From assembly GCF_004345735.1 (NCBI RefSeq), contig NZ_SLXL01000002.1:1-64000 (forward strand): a stretch of 64,000 nucleotides of DNA. Direction: 5' to 3'. This document shows positions 7,840-44,563 of the stretch, in pieces. Positions within the stretch are counted from its first letter, which is position 1. Each line of letters opens with the position of its first letter. A program made the position numbers and the translations under genes. Source of the stretch: Rhodovulum adriaticum (GTDB taxonomy: Bacteria > Pseudomonadota > Alphaproteobacteria > Rhodobacterales > Rhodobacteraceae). The notes beneath the pieces are model-generated. The model saw nothing but the letters and a program-made list of their open reading frames with translations. It was not told where the DNA came from and did no database searches.

Positions 7840-7865
7840 GTTCTTCGACAGAACATAGCGTGAAC
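7840..7865 (+). promoter_or_regulatory. LexA (SOS) box for umuDC
   Basis: GAAC-ATAGCGT-GAAC at 7851-7865 is an exact alphaproteobacterial SOS box (GAAC-N7-GAAC). A further GTTC at 7840-7843, also 7 bases from the first GAAC, gives a second overlapping site. TTGGAT (7814-7819) and TAGTGT (7836-7841) with a 16-base gap form the probable promoter, so LexA binding would cover the start of transcription. The box overlaps the possible GTG start at 7860. Confidence 0.8.
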
Positions 7866-7874
7866 ACCAACCCC

Positions 7875-8309
7875 ATGCCGCTTCATCCGATCGACAAGCC
7901 CGTTCGCATCTCCGGCTCGTCTCAGCCGCTCGCGCTTCCGCGCGCAAGCGCGGGATTTCCCTCTCCCGCGGCCGATGATCTCGAGGACGAAATCGATCCG
8001 ATCGCGTGGATCCTGCGCCACCCGACCTCCACCTTCTGGTGGCGGGTGGAAGGGGACTGCCTGTGGGACGCGGGGATCCGGGACGGGGACCTGATCGCGG
8101 TGGACCGGGCCGGGAAGCGGCGGATCGGCAGGGCGGTCCTGGCCGTCGTCGAGGGCGCCGTGACCGCCAAGATCCTGCGCAAGCGGGAGGGACGGTTCTA
8201 CCTGGCCCCGGCGAACAGCCGGGAGGCTTACCCGGACATCCCGCTCACCGAGGAAAGCGAGATCTGGGGCGTCATCGCCGGCGTGGTGCGGCGCTACCCG
8301 GTCGAATGA
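7875..8309 (+). CDS. umuD: UmuD-like S24 peptidase subunit with Cys at the catalytic Ser position
   Basis: A 144-residue UmuD protein that, after RecA-stimulated self-cleavage, forms DNA polymerase V with UmuC. The cleavage site is seen as Ala-Gly/Phe at residues 26-28 (ASAGFPSPA). The catalytic motif reads [15 protein letters not shown]: the nucleophile, Ser in the family (Ser60 of E. coli), is Cys62, while the general-base Lys99 (TAKIL) is kept at the same 37-residue distance. The ATG at 7875 is chosen because GTG 7860 lies inside the SOS box. The stop overlaps umuC by 4 bases. Confidence 0.85.
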
Positions 8310-13493: not shown

Positions 13494-16139
13494 CTACGTC
13501 ATTGCAATCGCGAACCGCGCCTCTGCCCCGCCCAGGCGTGAGAATGCCCTCTGGCGGCAGGTGAAGACGATGATCTGCTGGTCGCCGGCGACACGGTGAA
13601 GGGCGGTGAACATGCGCTCGATCCGGTCGTCGTCGGAATGGATCAGCGCGTCGTCCAGGATCACCGGCACGCTTTGCCCCGTGCGGGCGAAGAGCCGGGC
13701 GAAGGCCAGGCGGGTCAGGATCGCGATCTGTTCGGCGGTGCCGCCCGAGAGGATCTCGATATCTTCTTCCTGCCCCTGACGGGTCAGCGCGACGGGCAAG
13801 AGGGTGGCGTCGTCCAACCGGATATCGGCCTCGTCATGCAGAAGCGACAGCAGCGGCAGAAGCTCGGCCTTCACCGGCTCGAAATAGGCGTCGCGGGCGG
13901 CGTGGCGGGCGGCGGTCAGGGCCTCTTCCAGCTTTTGCAGGGCGGCGGCCTCGCGGGCGTAGCGCGCAGCGCGGGCCTTGGCCGTGTCCAGCTGCCCCTC
14001 GATCTCGGCCAGGCGTTCCTCGATCCCGTCCTCGGCGCGCGCGCGGATCAGGCCGTCCAGCCGGTGCACCTGTTCGGACAGGGCGCGCATCCGGTCCGTG
14101 GCGGCCTTTACCGCACCGTCGGCCCGGGCCAGTTCCGCGCGCAGGGTGTCCATGTCGGGAGCCTGAGCGGCCAGCGCATCGCGGGCGGCGGTTGCCCTGT
14201 CCCGCTTTTCCGTGGCCTGATGCAGTCGCTCTGCCGCTTGCGCCGTCTTCTCGGCATGTTCGGTCTCGGTCCCTAGCGCCGTGCGGGCAGACTCAAGCGC
14301 CTCGCGCGCCTGGCCGTGCGCGGTCTGGGCGGCGGACAGGCCCATGTCGGCCCGGGCCAGCGCCTTGCGCGCGGCATCGAGGGTGGCGCGGGCCTCGGTC
14401 TCGGCGGCCTCGGCCTCCTCCAGCTGCCGTGCGAGCGCGTCGGGGTCTCCGGCCTCTTCCTCCTGCTCGGCCCCGGCGCTCAGGGTCAGGGCGGCCACGG
14501 TTTCGCGCAGCTTGTCCATCCCTTCGGGGGCGAGGCTTGCCAGCAGTTGCGCGGCCTGGGCGGCGGCGGCCTCGGCCTTTTGCCGGGCGGTATGGGCGGT
14601 GCGGGCCTCGGCCAGCGTCGTCACGCCGGCCGCCTCCAGCGCCTCGCGCAAGGCGCGCTCTGCCGCCTCGCAGGCCGCGCGGGCGGCCTCGGCGGTGTCG
14701 CGGCCGCCGGTGTCGATCTCCAGCGCACCCAATCCGGGCAGATCCAGCCGGGCGCGGTCCTGCAGCGGGCGGGCCGTGCCCTCGGGCAGTTCCTCGCCGT
14801 CCAGCGTGATCCGCAGATCGCCGGAGTAGCGGGGCGTGACGGTCACGGCCAGCGCATCCCGGCGGGCCTGCGCCGCGGTCAGCTTGCGGTTGAGATCATC
14901 CAGCGTGGCCAGCGTGGTGTCATCAACGCGGGCGGCCTCGACCTGCGCACGCGCCTCGGCCAGGTGCTTGCCCTGCGCCTCGGCCTTCTCCAGCCGCGCC
15001 TGCATCTCGCCCAGGCGGTCAGCGGCCATCCGGGCCAGCGCGGCCCGCTGCGCCCGGCCATGGGCGGCGCGCGCCGCCTTGACCCGGGCCTCGGCGCCGC
15101 TCACGGCCTGTGCCGCCGTGGCCTCCTCGGCCCCGCGGGCGGCATGGGCCGCCTGCGCTTGACGTTCCGCCTCGGCCGCCGCTGCAACCGCCGCCTGCGC
15201 CTCGGCCAGGGCCGCTTCCAACCCCTGCAAGTCCTTTACCTCTGCCGCGGCGGCCGCGTGTTCCAGCCCGGCGATCGTGACCTCGCGTTCCGCGGCCTTC
15301 AGCCGGGCGGCATGGGCCTCGGCCGCCTGCATGGCCTCGCGCGCTTCCTTCAGCGCCGCCTCCCGCGCCGCGCGTTCGTCGGGGTCGTCCAGCCGGGCGC
15401 GCTCGGCCTCGGCGCGGCGGCGCTCTTCCAGCGCCCCCGACAGTTCCGCGACCTGGGCGGCCAGCGTGTCGCGGGTGGCAGACAGGTGCGCCACCTCGTC
15501 CTCGGCGCGTTTCCAGGGGCCGCCGGCCCTGGGCTTGCCGGTCGCGGTGGCGGTCTCGGCCAGTTCCGCCCGGCAGGCGGCCAGCACATGGTCCATCCGC
15601 CGCCCGCCGGTCATCAGGTCGATCTCGCCGGCCAGGGTCGACATCAGGTCGCGCCTTGCGGCCAGCGCGGTTTCCCGCTCGCGTTTCTCGGCGGTCGTGG
15701 TGCCGTCCGGCTCCAGCGCGGTCACGCCCTGGCGCACCCACAAGAGCCCCGCCGGGCCGCCAAGGCCGCCCCGGATCAGCCGGTCGATCCAGGCCTCGGC
15801 CTCGTCCTCCTGCGCCAGCAGGCGGCCGGTCGCGCAATCCGTAACCCTGGCCGATTTCCGCGAGAGCCAGGTCTTTTCCAGCCGGAACCGGCCCTCGCCG
15901 GTCTCGATCTCGGCGGTCACGGTGACCGCACCCCCGGAATGCGGGCGCAGCGATTTCACCTCGCGGTTCTGGCTTGCATGGGATTGGAAGAACAGCGCAT
16001 GCAGCGCGTCGAAGAAGGTGGACTTGCCGCTTTCATTCGGGGCCGAGAACACCGTGATCCCGTCGCCGATGTCGTCGAGCGCGGCGGTCTGCCCGGCAAA
16101 GCGGCGGACATTGGTGAGATGCAGAGCGCGGAGTTTCAT
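13494..16139 (-). CDS. YhaN/SbcC-like AAA ATPase
   Basis: An 881-residue SMC-like ATPase partner of the nuclease encoded just upstream. The N-terminal MKLRALHLTNVRRFAG begins the fold, followed by Walker A SAPNESGKSTFFDALH (about 33-48). A very long Ala/Glu/Arg-rich coiled coil fills the middle, with a hinge-like LRITLDGEELPEGTARPL. The C-terminus carries the ABC signature EILSGGTAEQ and Walker B VPVILDDALIH, then an FTCRQRAFSRL switch segment. ATG 16139 is chosen because it overlaps the nuclease stop (ATGA); the much longer frame upstream is the nuclease's shadow. The likely role is DNA end processing. Confidence 0.85.
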   Translation of the reverse strand: MKLRALHLTNVRRFAGQTAALDDIGDGITVFSAPNESGKSTFFDALHALFFQSHASQNREVKSLRPHSGGAVTVTAEIETGEGRFRLEKTWLSRKSARVTDCATGRLLAQEDEAEAWIDRLIRGGLGGPAGLLWVRQGVTALEPDGTTTAEKRERETALAARRDLMSTLAGEIDLMTGGRRMDHVLAACRAELAETATATGKPRAGGPWKRAEDEVAHLSATRDTLAAQVAELSGALEERRRAEAERARLDDPDERAAREAALKEAREAMQAAEAHAARLKAAEREVTIAGLEHAAAAAEVKDLQGLEAALAEAQAAVAAAAEAERQAQAAHAARGAEEATAAQAVSGAEARVKAARAAHGRAQRAALARMAADRLGEMQARLEKAEAQGKHLAEARAQVEAARVDDTTLATLDDLNRKLTAAQARRDALAVTVTPRYSGDLRITLDGEELPEGTARPLQDRARLDLPGLGALEIDTGGRDTAEAARAACEAAERALREALEAAGVTTLAEARTAHTARQKAEAAAAQAAQLLASLAPEGMDKLRETVAALTLSAGAEQEEEAGDPDALARQLEEAEAAETEARATLDAARKALARADMGLSAAQTAHGQAREALESARTALGTETEHAEKTAQAAERLHQATEKRDRATAARDALAAQAPDMDTLRAELARADGAVKAATDRMRALSEQVHRLDGLIRARAEDGIEERLAEIEGQLDTAKARAARYAREAAALQKLEEALTAARHAARDAYFEPVKAELLPLLSLLHDEADIRLDDATLLPVALTRQGQEEDIEILSGGTAEQIAILTRLAFARLFARTGQSVPVILDDALIHSDDDRIERMFTALHRVAGDQQIIVFTCRQRAFSRLGGAEARFAIAMT

Positions 16140-17248
16140 GCGACCTCCGATGCCAGGGCGTAGAGCCGGGCCAGCGCCGCGGCGGCGATCTCGCGATCTT
16201 CTTCCGACAGCGCGGGGCTCTGCGCCTCTTCCCACAGCGCCTCGGCCGCGCGGCGCAGGGCGCCGGCCCGGTCGATCTCGTCGAGATCCGTCACGTCGTG
16301 ATGGATGGAAAGGCCGCCGAGCTCCGCCTCGAACCAGGCGAAGTCCTCGCGCAGCGCCCGGGCGCCGGTTTCCAGCAGGGTGCGTTCGGCCAGGGTCAGC
16401 CGCCCCTGGGGGTGCAGGCGGAACAGCGTTCTGCGCCGAGCCTCGGGCGGCGGCAGCAGCCCGGCCAACCGCGCCTCGACATCCTCGCCGGGCAACAGGT
16501 CCGGGCGCGTGGTCACCCACGCATAATCCCCGGTCGCAACCGGCATCACCTCTGGCGCGGCGCCCGGACCCGCCAGCGTCACGGCCAGCGCCGTGGCGGG
16601 CGCGTCATGCTTGAAGCTGTCGGCCTCGGGCGTGCCGGAATACCAGCTCCGCGCGCCGATCGGCATCTGCCCGTGCCAGTCGCCAAGCCCGAGGTACTCC
16701 AGCCCCGAGCGCGCGGCCCGGTCGGGCGGGATCAGGGCGGCATCGCCCTCCTCGCTGAACTCGGTCACCGCGCCATGGGCAAGGCCGATGCGCAGGGCCC
16801 CCTCGGGCGTGGCCTGGTCCAGCACGCTGGTCAGGTCGCGCCCGGGCCGCCGCGCGGTGCACGGCGCGGGCAGGATCGCGGCGGGGCCGATCCCGATCGG
16901 CGTGGGGTCGAGGGCCAGGCGCACATTATCCGGCTGCGCCTCGGCCACCCGCCGCCACAGGTCCAGCGCGGCCAGCGAGTCGTGGTTGCCCGGCAGGATC
17001 ACCCAGGTCAGATCGCTGGCCTCGGCCATCGCCTGCAGCGCGTGGCGGATCGTGGCGGGTGCCGGGGTTTCCGCGTCGAACGTGTCGCCGGCCAGCAGGA
17101 TCACCCCCGCGCCATGGGCCCGCGCGGCCCCGGCCAGCCGCCCCAGCGCCGCGTACCGCGCCGCGCGCAACAGTGCCGGCAGGTCGCCGTCGAACCGCCC
17201 GAACGGCTTGCCCAGGTGCAGGTCGGAACTGTGGATGAAGCGGAACAC
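16136..17248 (-). CDS. YhaO/SbcD-like metallophosphoesterase nuclease
   Basis: A 370-residue DNA exonuclease family protein. The metallophosphoesterase motifs appear in order: HSSDLHLGK (D, H), LAGDTFD, LPGNHDS, LAHG and GLGDWHG. A C-terminal capping region follows, used to dock the ATPase. The GTG at 17248 is preferred, with GGAG 9 bases upstream; the longer frame starts 16 codons earlier without support. The stop overlaps the ATPase start by 4 bases, so the two are made as a complex. Known relatives remove DNA hairpins and blocked ends. Confidence 0.85.
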   Translation of the reverse strand: MFRFIHSSDLHLGKPFGRFDGDLPALLRAARYAALGRLAGAARAHGAGVILLAGDTFDAETPAPATIRHALQAMAEASDLTWVILPGNHDSLAALDLWRRVAEAQPDNVRLALDPTPIGIGPAAILPAPCTARRPGRDLTSVLDQATPEGALRIGLAHGAVTEFSEEGDAALIPPDRAARSGLEYLGLGDWHGQMPIGARSWYSGTPEADSFKHDAPATALAVTLAGPGAAPEVMPVATGDYAWVTTRPDLLPGEDVEARLAGLLPPPEARRRTLFRLHPQGRLTLAERTLLETGARALREDFAWFEAELGGLSIHHDVTDLDEIDRAGALRRAAEALWEEAQSPALSEEDREIAAAALARLYALASEVA

Positions 17249-17447
17249 GCGTCGAACTCCTTTACAAACCCTGCCGCACACACCCGGCCAACGCAATACA
17301 AGCCCAGGCGGTTTGCGGGATGCGCGACTCGCCCAATAACAAGTCTGATCCTTGCCTAAAGCCTGACGGTGTCAAACCCTGTCATGGGCACCGCCGTAAC
17401 GTCATTCTTCCAGGACCGGCCCGGTCGCAGGCGCAACCGCCCCTGCC

Positions 17448-27004: not shown

Positions 27005-27202
27005 ATGCAGCGCCTCGCCGTCCGCGACACCACCGCTGCAAAAATGCTGGACATGCCGCCGACGCAATTTCGGCGGCTAGTCGCAGATGGTGCGCTGCCG
27101 CCGCCCACGCGAATCGCAGGCTTGGAGCGCTGGCGAGTGGATCAATTGCAGGCCATCTTGTCCGGAGAGGCCGCAAAGCCGAATGAGGATTTTGAGTTAT
27201 GA
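27005..27202 (+). CDS. Excisionase/AlpA-like HTH protein
   Basis: A 65-residue protein with a MerR/AlpA-type helix-turn-helix: TTAAKMLDMPPTQFRRLVADGALPPPTRIAGLERW followed by a wing helix RVDQLQAILSG. Proteins of this kind direct excision or control integrase genes. ATG 27005 follows the previous stop by 3 bases, and its stop overlaps the integrase start by 4 bases. Confidence 0.75.
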   Translation: MQRLAVRDTTAAKMLDMPPTQFRRLVADGALPPPTRIAGLERWRVDQLQAILSGEAAKPNEDFEL

Positions 27203-28242
27203 GGCCGCCCAAACCCCGCATCACTAAGCCCCGCCTTGTCTGGCGCTGGACCGGAAAAGCCTGGACGCCGTTCCACCGCATCACATGGACCGAATCTGGC
27301 AAGCGCAGGGCGCACGAAATCAAGCTGGATTGGCGGGGCGACCCCGAACGGCTCGACGAACTCTATTGGGCCGCACAGAGCGGCCAGCACGACCGGCAGA
27401 AGAGCCCCGCGTGCTATAGCTGGGGCGAGTGCATTCTGGCGTGGCGCAAAGACCCGACTGTCCAAGGGAGACTGGCCGCCAAGACAAAGGCCGATTACTG
27501 GCGCGTCATGGATGAGATCTGCGAAAAAAACGCCGGCAAGGATATGCGCAAGACCTCGCGGGCGGCCGTCCGCGCCGCTGTGGGCAAGCTGTCCGACACC
27601 CCGCGCAAGGCCGCGCGCTATGCGCAGACGGTCTCGATCCTATGGAATTACGCCCGCCGGGAACTGGATTGGCCGTTGGGCGAGAATCCAGCGGCCGGGT
27701 TAGCGAAATACAAGCCCGCCAAGCCCTATGACCCATGGCCCGCATGGATGGTCAAGGCCCTCGATACCGCGCCGGAGCGGGTGCAGACCGCCGCGCGGCT
27801 CATCCTTGGCACCGGCCAGCGCCCGAACGCGGCCATCACCATGCGGCGCGACCAATTCCGGGGCGAGTGGATGGCCGTCAGGGACGAAAAGGGCGACCAG
27901 GAACTCGAGGTTTACTGCCCGCCCGCGCTCCGCGCCTACGTCGAAGCCCTACCCGCCCGCGGCGTCCATGTCCTCCCGAAGAACCTGACTGAGCCGCAGG
28001 GATACCATGCGATCGAGCGGGCCTTTCGGGCGTGGCGGCAATCGCTGGGCGAGCGCGCATCTCCCTACAGCCTGCACGGCTTGCGCAAGCTGGCGATCAT
28101 TGAGCTGGCCGAGGCCGGGGCAAGCGACGCAGAGATCCAAGCCGTCACGGGGCAGTCGGCCCAGATGGTCGCTTACTACCGGACCAAGGCCAGCAAAAAG
28201 CGCCTCAGCCGATCCGCCCAAGAGCGCCGGGGTAGAACGTGA
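27199..28242 (+). CDS. Tyrosine-type site-specific integrase
   Basis: A 347-residue tyrosine recombinase. The catalytic domain shows Arg I in LILGTGQRPNAAITMR (about 201-214), the HxxR-like box LHGLRKLAIIELAEAG and the C-terminal TGQSAQMVAYYRTK with the nucleophilic Tyr. The N-terminal arm (MRPPKPRITKPRLVWRWTGK) is the start of an arm-binding region. It stops 97 bases from the 3' end of tRNA-Leu and points at it, the usual arrangement for a tRNA-integrated element; the second attachment site was not found by eye. Confidence 0.85.
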   Translation: MRPPKPRITKPRLVWRWTGKAWTPFHRITWTESGKRRAHEIKLDWRGDPERLDELYWAAQSGQHDRQKSPACYSWGECILAWRKDPTVQGRLAAKTKADYWRVMDEICEKNAGKDMRKTSRAAVRAAVGKLSDTPRKAARYAQTVSILWNYARRELDWPLGENPAAGLAKYKPAKPYDPWPAWMVKALDTAPERVQTAARLILGTGQRPNAAITMRRDQFRGEWMAVRDEKGDQELEVYCPPALRAYVEALPARGVHVLPKNLTEPQGYHAIERAFRAWRQSLGERASPYSLHGLRKLAIIELAEAGASDAEIQAVTGQSAQMVAYYRTKASKKRLSRSAQERRGRT

Positions 28243-28338
28243 ACAGAACAGGAATGTGTGAATAGGGTGTGTGAATGACTGCACCGTGGCATAATATCTG
28301 CTGGGCGCAATACGGAAAAAGTCGTTGCGATTTCAAGC

Positions 28339-39787: not shown

Positions 39788-39974
39788 CGGCGGACTCCGG
39801 GTTGTCCCCCTTTCCACGGATCGGCGCGCCACCTCCGTCGCAGAAAAACCGCCGCGCGCCCGAAAAGGGCGGCGGCGGCAAGTTATGCGCCTGTGCCGCG
39901 CCCGGCGAGGCAAGCCGGGAAACCGCCGGGGATTGGCGGCGCGGACTGGGCACAGGCGGCAGGCAGAAACCGGT

Positions 39975-40097
39975 TCAGATCAGCGCAGGCAGGTGCAGGC
40001 CCGCAATCAACAGCACCATCAGCGATGTCGCGCCAAGCGCATCCTGCCACAGGGTGGCTTGGCAACGGGTCAGGGCCGACTTGAGTTCGCGCAGCAT
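39975..40097 (-). CDS. 40-residue membrane microprotein with SOS box
   Basis: A 40-codon gene: a basic amphipathic head (MLRELKSALTRCQATLWQD) followed by one membrane segment (LGATSLMVLLIAGLHLP) to the C-terminus. GGAGTG lies 6 bases upstream of the ATG, and 63 bases above the start sits an exact GAAC-N7-GAAC SOS box. It lies between the hydrolase gene and recG, all on the same strand. I recall similar tiny genes in relatives, usually unannotated. SOS-controlled single-pass microproteins such as Caulobacter SidA block division, so a similar role is proposed. Shared ancestry with SidA is not shown. Confidence 0.65.
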   Translation of the reverse strand: MLRELKSALTRCQATLWQDALGATSLMVLLIAGLHLPALI

Positions 40098-40160
40098 GGG
40101 AACACTCCGTGTTGATGCTCTTGTTACCTCTTTGTTCTCATTTTTGGCACCACGTGTAAA

Positions 40161-40175
40161 GAACTTTTTAAGAAC
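40161..40175 (-). promoter_or_regulatory. SOS (LexA) box for the 40-residue membrane protein
   Basis: GAAC-TTTTTAA-GAAC is an exact GAAC-N7-GAAC box in an AT-rich promoter region. A third GAAC follows after 6 bases (40182-40185). The next gene upstream on this strand, recG, ends at 40326, so the box can only serve the small gene. Confidence 0.7.
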
Positions 40176-40325
40176 ATTTGAGAACAAAGGGGGGCTGACA
40201 GTACCAACGGGCCGTCTTACGGCGCAGACAACGCGCCCCGCCCGTACCTTGCGATTCATTCGAAGCATTTAGATAGACCGTTCAGCACACCGGCCCGGCC
40301 GCGCCCCCAAGCGTATTTCACCAGG

Positions 40326-44563
<4,238 letters not shown>

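What the first reader, a model, noticed from the sequence alone, without database searches (positions are those of the whole stretch)
39975..40175. Unannotated 40-residue membrane microprotein under a perfect SOS box: SidA-like division inhibitor?
A 40-codon gene with an amphipathic head, one C-terminal membrane segment and a good ribosome-binding site lies 63 bases downstream of an exact GAAC-N7-GAAC LexA box that can serve nothing else. Caulobacter SidA is a single-pass SOS-induced microprotein that stops division; no such inhibitor gene is otherwise visible in this window. The box and gene are seen directly; the role is inference from architecture.
Basis: partly seen in the sequence, partly recalled or inferred. 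Interest (0 to 1): 0.85.

Follow-up and report, generated by a model that had tools for sequence, protein, structure and literature searches.

The report
DNA-damage-controlled membrane microprotein of Rhodobacteraceae
Behind the DNA-repair gene recG lies a real but overlooked gene for a 40-residue membrane-type protein, kept under DNA-damage (SOS) control across one large bacterial family; it may pause cell division during repair, but that role is untested.

Summary
The 40-codon gene (39975-40097, minus strand) starts 63 bases after an exact LexA box. Relatives occur in 130 of 198 (single sequence) and 216 of 248 (profile) genomes of the same family. The box is upstream in 129 of 130 loci and recG in 125 of 130. 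The frame is under purifying selection. A second, inverted LexA-type operator (GAAC-N7-NAAC, 125 of 129) makes the promoter look doubly locked. No Pfam or NCBIfam model matches the window's protein, and members give only weak scattered matches; nothing convincing was found outside the family. The predicted structure is one helix with an essentially uncharged membrane segment and a conserved stripe (D19, G22, L26, L30, L34, P37), suggesting docking onto a membrane partner rather than a charge-lined pore. Best explanation: an SOS checkpoint effector that pauses division through the divisome, FtsW being the likeliest target. That step is inference, and homology to SidA could not be tested. LexA control: about 0.97. 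Division inhibition: about 0.55.

The parts
39975..40097 (-). Gene of the 40-residue membrane-type microprotein (ATG start, TGA stop)
   Evidence: relatives; selection; helix model
40161..40175 (-). LexA operator 1, GTTCTTAAAAAGTTC in the gene's direction
   Evidence: exact box in 129 of 130 loci
40182..40185 (-). Extra GTTC half-site six bases before operator 1
   Evidence: sequence; present at this spacing in 112 of 129 loci
40155..40160 (-). TTTACA, probable -35 element directly after operator 1
   Evidence: conserved in the promoter alignment; role inferred, and the promoter scan reported none
40123..40137 (-). Operator 2 in the opposite orientation: GAAC-N7-TAAC here (one base off the exact box), probably over the -10/start region
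   Evidence: GAAC-N7-NAAC in 125 of 129 loci, exact GAAC in 6; exact in some diverged relatives; binding not tested
40105..40108 (-). GGAG, probable ribosome-binding site, 7 bases before the ATG
39843..39879 (-). Stem-loop followed by U5, probable terminator after the microprotein gene
   Evidence: -28.3 kcal/mol, z -5.4; not found by the simple scan
40326..42416 (-). recG (696 codons), upstream neighbour on the same strand
   Evidence: upstream in 125 of 130 loci

Best explanation
It is a DNA-damage checkpoint effector. LexA sits on two oppositely oriented operators and keeps the gene silent. When damage activates RecA, LexA is cleaved and a short monocistronic transcript makes a 40-residue protein. 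The protein inserts as a single helix in the inner membrane, its basic amphipathic head on the cytoplasmic side. The conserved stripe of the helix (D19, G22, L26, L30, L34, P37) docks onto a membrane partner of the division machinery, most likely FtsW, and holds back septal wall synthesis until repair is done. Shown here from sequence: gene, selection, operator 1, the conserved GAAC-N7-NAAC, the recG neighbourhood, the single-helix model, the conserved stripe. Inferred: LexA binding at both sites, induction, topology, partner, division arrest.
For: Box upstream in 129 of 130 loci. Promoter-only scan: 117 of 118 loci have the protein. Second operator at LexA spacing in 125 of 129; doubled repression fits a product that is harmful when leaked (inference). 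lexA and recA of the same genome carry exact boxes just upstream, in operator 2's orientation. Usually one copy per genome with a match and 216 of 248 family genomes matched, unlike patchy toxin-antitoxin genes. Uncharged membrane segment with a conserved stripe (p 0.015 for residues 18-39). Precedent, from passages read: SidA of Caulobacter acts on FtsW; YneA binds FtsW through its membrane helix and others are predicted to; a Caulobacter lexA mutant filaments because of sidA. No SulA match in this genome.
Against: No measurement of induction, localisation or cell length. The stripe is only marginal on the inner segment (p 0.058 for residues 20-36). No partner was identified. 32 of 248 family genomes have no profile match. 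Some SOS membrane microproteins are depolarising toxins, not division inhibitors. No transmembrane predictor was run; membrane insertion rests on hydropathy and the helix model.
Confidence: 0.55

Rival explanations
1. An SOS-induced membrane protein that acts on some other membrane target (a protease, a transporter, a respiratory or wall-synthesis complex other than the septal one), slowing growth or tuning the envelope during repair rather than blocking division directly.
For: The conserved stripe predicts a protein partner but does not say which; no partner is encoded beside it except recG, which is not a membrane protein.
Against: The partner-binding SOS single-pass proteins met in the papers consulted act on septal wall synthesis (passages only).
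Confidence: 0.28
2. A TisB-like SOS toxin that depolarises the inner membrane and induces dormancy, possibly restrained by an antisense RNA.
For: Same size class and same type of control; tight repression fits toxicity.
Against: TisB needs charged and polar residues along its helix (passages); here positions 20-37 show a charged fraction of 0.00 after rounding and no amphipathicity. The leader between operator 2 and the start codon is poorly conserved (at most about 0.2 bits per position from +56 on), so no conserved antisense target is apparent. The gene is near-universal in the family, not patchy.
Confidence: 0.12
3. Not a gene: a chance frame, with the box serving recG or the esterase-like gene, or an RNA.
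For: No Pfam or NCBIfam match for the window's protein; the exact motif by itself is common in the genome.
Against: pN/pS 0.41 in 21 close pairs and 0.61 overall, against 1.02 and 1.56 in the shifted frames of sampled pairs; 107 of 130 loci encode exactly 40 residues; the box lies after recG's stop and the esterase follows only in the window.
Confidence: 0.03

Closest known systems
SidA of Caulobacter crescentus (29-residue SOS-induced division inhibitor acting on FtsW)
   Same: Alphaproteobacterial, SOS-controlled, tiny, one membrane helix (SidA facts from passages of PMC4211646)
   Different: 40 residues with an amphipathic head; a distinct conserved stripe; beside recG; no convincing match to the profile outside the family in 385 genomes of the class (genomes unnamed, so whether Caulobacter was among them is unknown). 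Homology not testable here; division inhibition not shown.
YneA, SosA and ChiZ (SOS division inhibitors of other phyla)
   Same: SOS-induced single-pass membrane proteins; YneA docks on FtsW by its helix (passages of PMC13396833)
   Different: YneA and ChiZ carry a LysM domain outside the membrane; this protein ends where the membrane helix ends
TisB of Escherichia coli (29-residue SOS depolarising toxin)
   Same: SOS-induced membrane microprotein
   Different: TisB has a hydrophilic helix face with charged residues (passages of PMC11449926); this helix has none in positions 20-37

Membership tests
LexA (SOS) regulon of alphaproteobacteria | Exact GTTC-N7-GTTC operator in the promoter, conserved in relatives | tested here: met
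   129 of 130 loci; promoter-only scan 117 of 118
LexA (SOS) regulon of alphaproteobacteria | LexA binding and damage induction | not testable with these tools
   needs experiments; lexA itself is present
SidA family | Sequence homology to SidA | not testable with these tools
SidA family | SOS box upstream and a single membrane helix in a very small protein | tested here: met
   membrane insertion from hydropathy and model only
SidA family | Blocks division through FtsW | not testable with these tools
   needs expression, microscopy and suppressors
TisB-type pore toxins | Amphipathic helix with charged or polar residues within the membrane segment | tested here: not met
   feature taken from passages
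TisB-type pore toxins | Antisense RNA antitoxin | tested here: inconclusive
   leader poorly conserved; no RNA data
SulA family (PF03846) | Profile match | tested here: not met
   the protein has no Pfam match; no match in the whole genome

The most novel reading that the evidence does not exclude
This is the SOS cell-division inhibitor of the Rhodobacteraceae: a family-wide checkpoint microprotein, evolved separately from SidA, locked by two opposed LexA operators, and overlooked because it is only about 31-42 residues long and diverges fast outside a stripe of six positions.
Probability: 0.5. Interest if true: 0.82.

Novelty: new variant of a known kind. Interest (0 to 1): 0.7.

Why it matters
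A near-universal SOS gene of a very large marine and soil family has no Pfam or NCBIfam model in the releases searched. If it stops division it gives these bacteria a damage checkpoint, offers more than 200 natural variants for mapping how one helix can switch off a membrane machine, and supplies a damage-responsive promoter with a clear two-operator design.

Tried and rejected
Chance frame or non-coding stretch: rejected by selection, length and synteny. Box serving recG or the esterase-like gene: rejected on position and on the esterase being unique to the window among 130 loci. Operator 2 as mere promoter wording: not excluded, but NAAC stays exactly 7 bases from GAAC in 125 of the 125 loci that have a GAAC there, also where the pair shifts by a base or more; other spacings give 0 to 13.

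Led nowhere: plasmid collection, no match; solved structures, none; PHROGs, one unnamed family matched weakly by 2 of 123 members; NCBIfam and Pfam, only weak scattered matches of 1 to 4 of 123 members, best E 0.0043 and 0.0053. The model was not sent to fold search, since a lone helix gives no meaningful match. Co-variation with FtsW was considered and not run. The phage collection, viral contigs and PADLOC were not searched.

Results against or limiting: 32 of 248 family genomes have no profile match. recG was found in 25 of these 32. Of those 25, 15 have an exact box of either orientation within 150 bases of recG's stop, and 14 of the 15 a short hydrophobic frame (the other, L290, is cut by the contig end); 10 have no exact box there, of which L294 has a similar frame and genome G056 (L302) has promoter and frame on another contig (L285). 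The hydrophobicity filter was not tested against chance. lexA was found in 25 of the 32 non-matching genomes and in 30 of 30 matching ones that I chose (of 216): Fisher p 0.011, or 0.044 on the 27 more complete non-matching ones. Two lexA-less genomes show neither box nor frame behind recG (L288, L292); one, G033 (74% complete), has both (L310).

Rows dropped: L002 (chance hit) from all counts; 7 of 130 loci left out of alignment A1 (L040, L057, L060, L065, L102, L121, L128); only the 107 loci of 130 with 40 codons used for pN/pS.

Full report
What is there. On the minus strand, 39975-40097 encodes MLRELKSALTRCQATLWQDALGATSLMVLLIAGLHLPALI, with GGAG 7 bases before the ATG and, 63 bases upstream, GTTCTTAAAAAGTTC, the alphaproteobacterial LexA box. 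By itself the motif proves little: 5 in the window against 1.34 expected, 90 in the genome against 67 for the reversed control.

Conservation. A single-sequence search found relatives in 130 of 198 genomes of the same family, window genome included. A profile from 123 members found 216 of 248. In 385 genomes of the class 7 matched: 5 of the same family and 2 weak ones (E 0.003 and 0.008) inside frames of 290 and 362 residues. The 118 loci of the promoter scan bear titles of Rhodobacteraceae or Rhodobacterales, or of unnamed alphaproteobacterial or pseudomonadotal assemblies (grouping of genera recalled), which places the window there.

Frame. Of 130 loci, 107 encode exactly 40 residues and 129 start with ATG. 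Over all pairs of those 107, mean pN/pS is 0.61; in the 21 closest pairs it is 0.41; in the two shifted frames, on sampled pairs, 1.02 and 1.56. The one locus without a box, L040, also lacks the usual stop and runs to 75 residues, as if decaying.

Operators. An exact box lies upstream in 129 of 130 loci, its start 66 to 115 bases before the ATG, against 7 in 1,301,518 strand-bases elsewhere in these loci. The promoter alignment shows an extra GTTC six bases before the box in 112 of 129, a TTTACA-like element directly after it, and GAACAA at +38 in 115. From that GAAC, NAAC follows at exactly N7 in 125 of 129 loci (CAAC 108, TAAC 7, GAAC 6, AAAC 4; 4 loci have no GAAC there), while other spacings from 4 to 11 give 0 to 13. 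This is LexA's spacing in the other orientation, the one used by the exact boxes upstream of lexA and recA in this genome (start codons there are candidates). In some diverged relatives (L296, L300, L307, L309) exact boxes of both orientations follow recG. I read this as a second operator; binding was not tested.

A partly independent test. I first examined 80 (79 with the protein) and then all 118: 117 have the microprotein; L241 ends 77 bases after the start of the match. Some of these genomes also contributed to the profile, so the test is not fully independent.

Neighbourhood. recG is upstream on the same strand in 125 of 130 loci, lies otherwise in 1, and was not found in 4. Outside the family, 27 recG regions were read (of the 30 loci given for 144 genomes, 142 of them matching; the other 3 are of the family): one box within 200 bases, with no short hydrophobic frame behind it. 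Inside the family, where the profile fails, 15 of 25 recG regions still carry a box. A stem-loop with U5 probably ends the transcript.

Form. AlphaFold2 gives one helix, residues 2-39, mean pLDDT 87.9, pTM 0.47. D19 and G22 are invariant in the 123 rows, though some diverged relatives have E in place of D. Positions 20-37 show a charged fraction of 0.00 after rounding; D19, G22, L26, L30, L34 and P37 line one side (p 0.015 for residues 18-39, 0.058 for 20-36). The head is amphipathic (p 0.038) with conserved K6 and R11, which suggests head-inside topology (inference, positive-inside rule). Two Paracoccus loci encode only 31 residues, so most of the head may be dispensable.

Mechanism. Doubled repression suggests a product harmful when leaked. 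The uncharged, one-sided helix suggests a protein partner, not a pore like TisB. The partner-binding SOS single-pass proteins in the papers consulted act on septal wall synthesis: SidA on FtsW, YneA on FtsW with others predicted; a Caulobacter lexA mutant filaments because of sidA. No SulA match was found in this genome. I therefore commit to division arrest through FtsW or its complex at 0.55, with another membrane target at 0.28 and a pore at 0.12.

Known or not. No Pfam or NCBIfam model matches the window's protein, and members gave only weak scattered matches. Ten paper searches listed no title or abstract opening that describes such a protein; beyond listings I saw passages of PMC6473078 (recG does not occur in it), PMC4211646, PMC12700426, PMC11449926 and PMC13396833. 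The Rhodobacter capsulatus lexA study cited there is not held and may list the gene, so I do not claim it is absent from print.

Noticed in passing
window 7851-7865 and 7860-8309 (+): Another exact GAAC-N7-GAAC box directly at the start of a UmuD-like gene (Peptidase_S24, E 3.3e-19), so the window holds a second plausible SOS gene.
   Followed up: partly
window 17243-17257 and 16136-17296 (-): An exact box at the start region of a calcineurin-like phosphoesterase gene that looks like sbcD; could be chance or SOS control of a repair nuclease.
   Followed up: partly
window 28235-28249 and 27199-28242 (+): An exact box at the 3' end of a phage-integrase-family gene.
   Followed up: no
L040 (genome G157): The only one of 130 loci without the LexA box also has lost the usual stop codon (75-residue frame), as if the gene decays once control is lost.
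   Followed up: no
L212 and L231 (Paracoccus): Members of only 31 residues that keep the promoter and the membrane core but lack the amphipathic head.
   Followed up: no
genomes G105, G215, G247: Two profile matches each, possible second copies.
   Followed up: no
L308, L310, L311 (AT-rich genomes G090, G033, G172): Boxes behind recG with strongly diverged short hydrophobic frames, hinting that operator and position are older than the recognisable protein sequence.
   Followed up: partly
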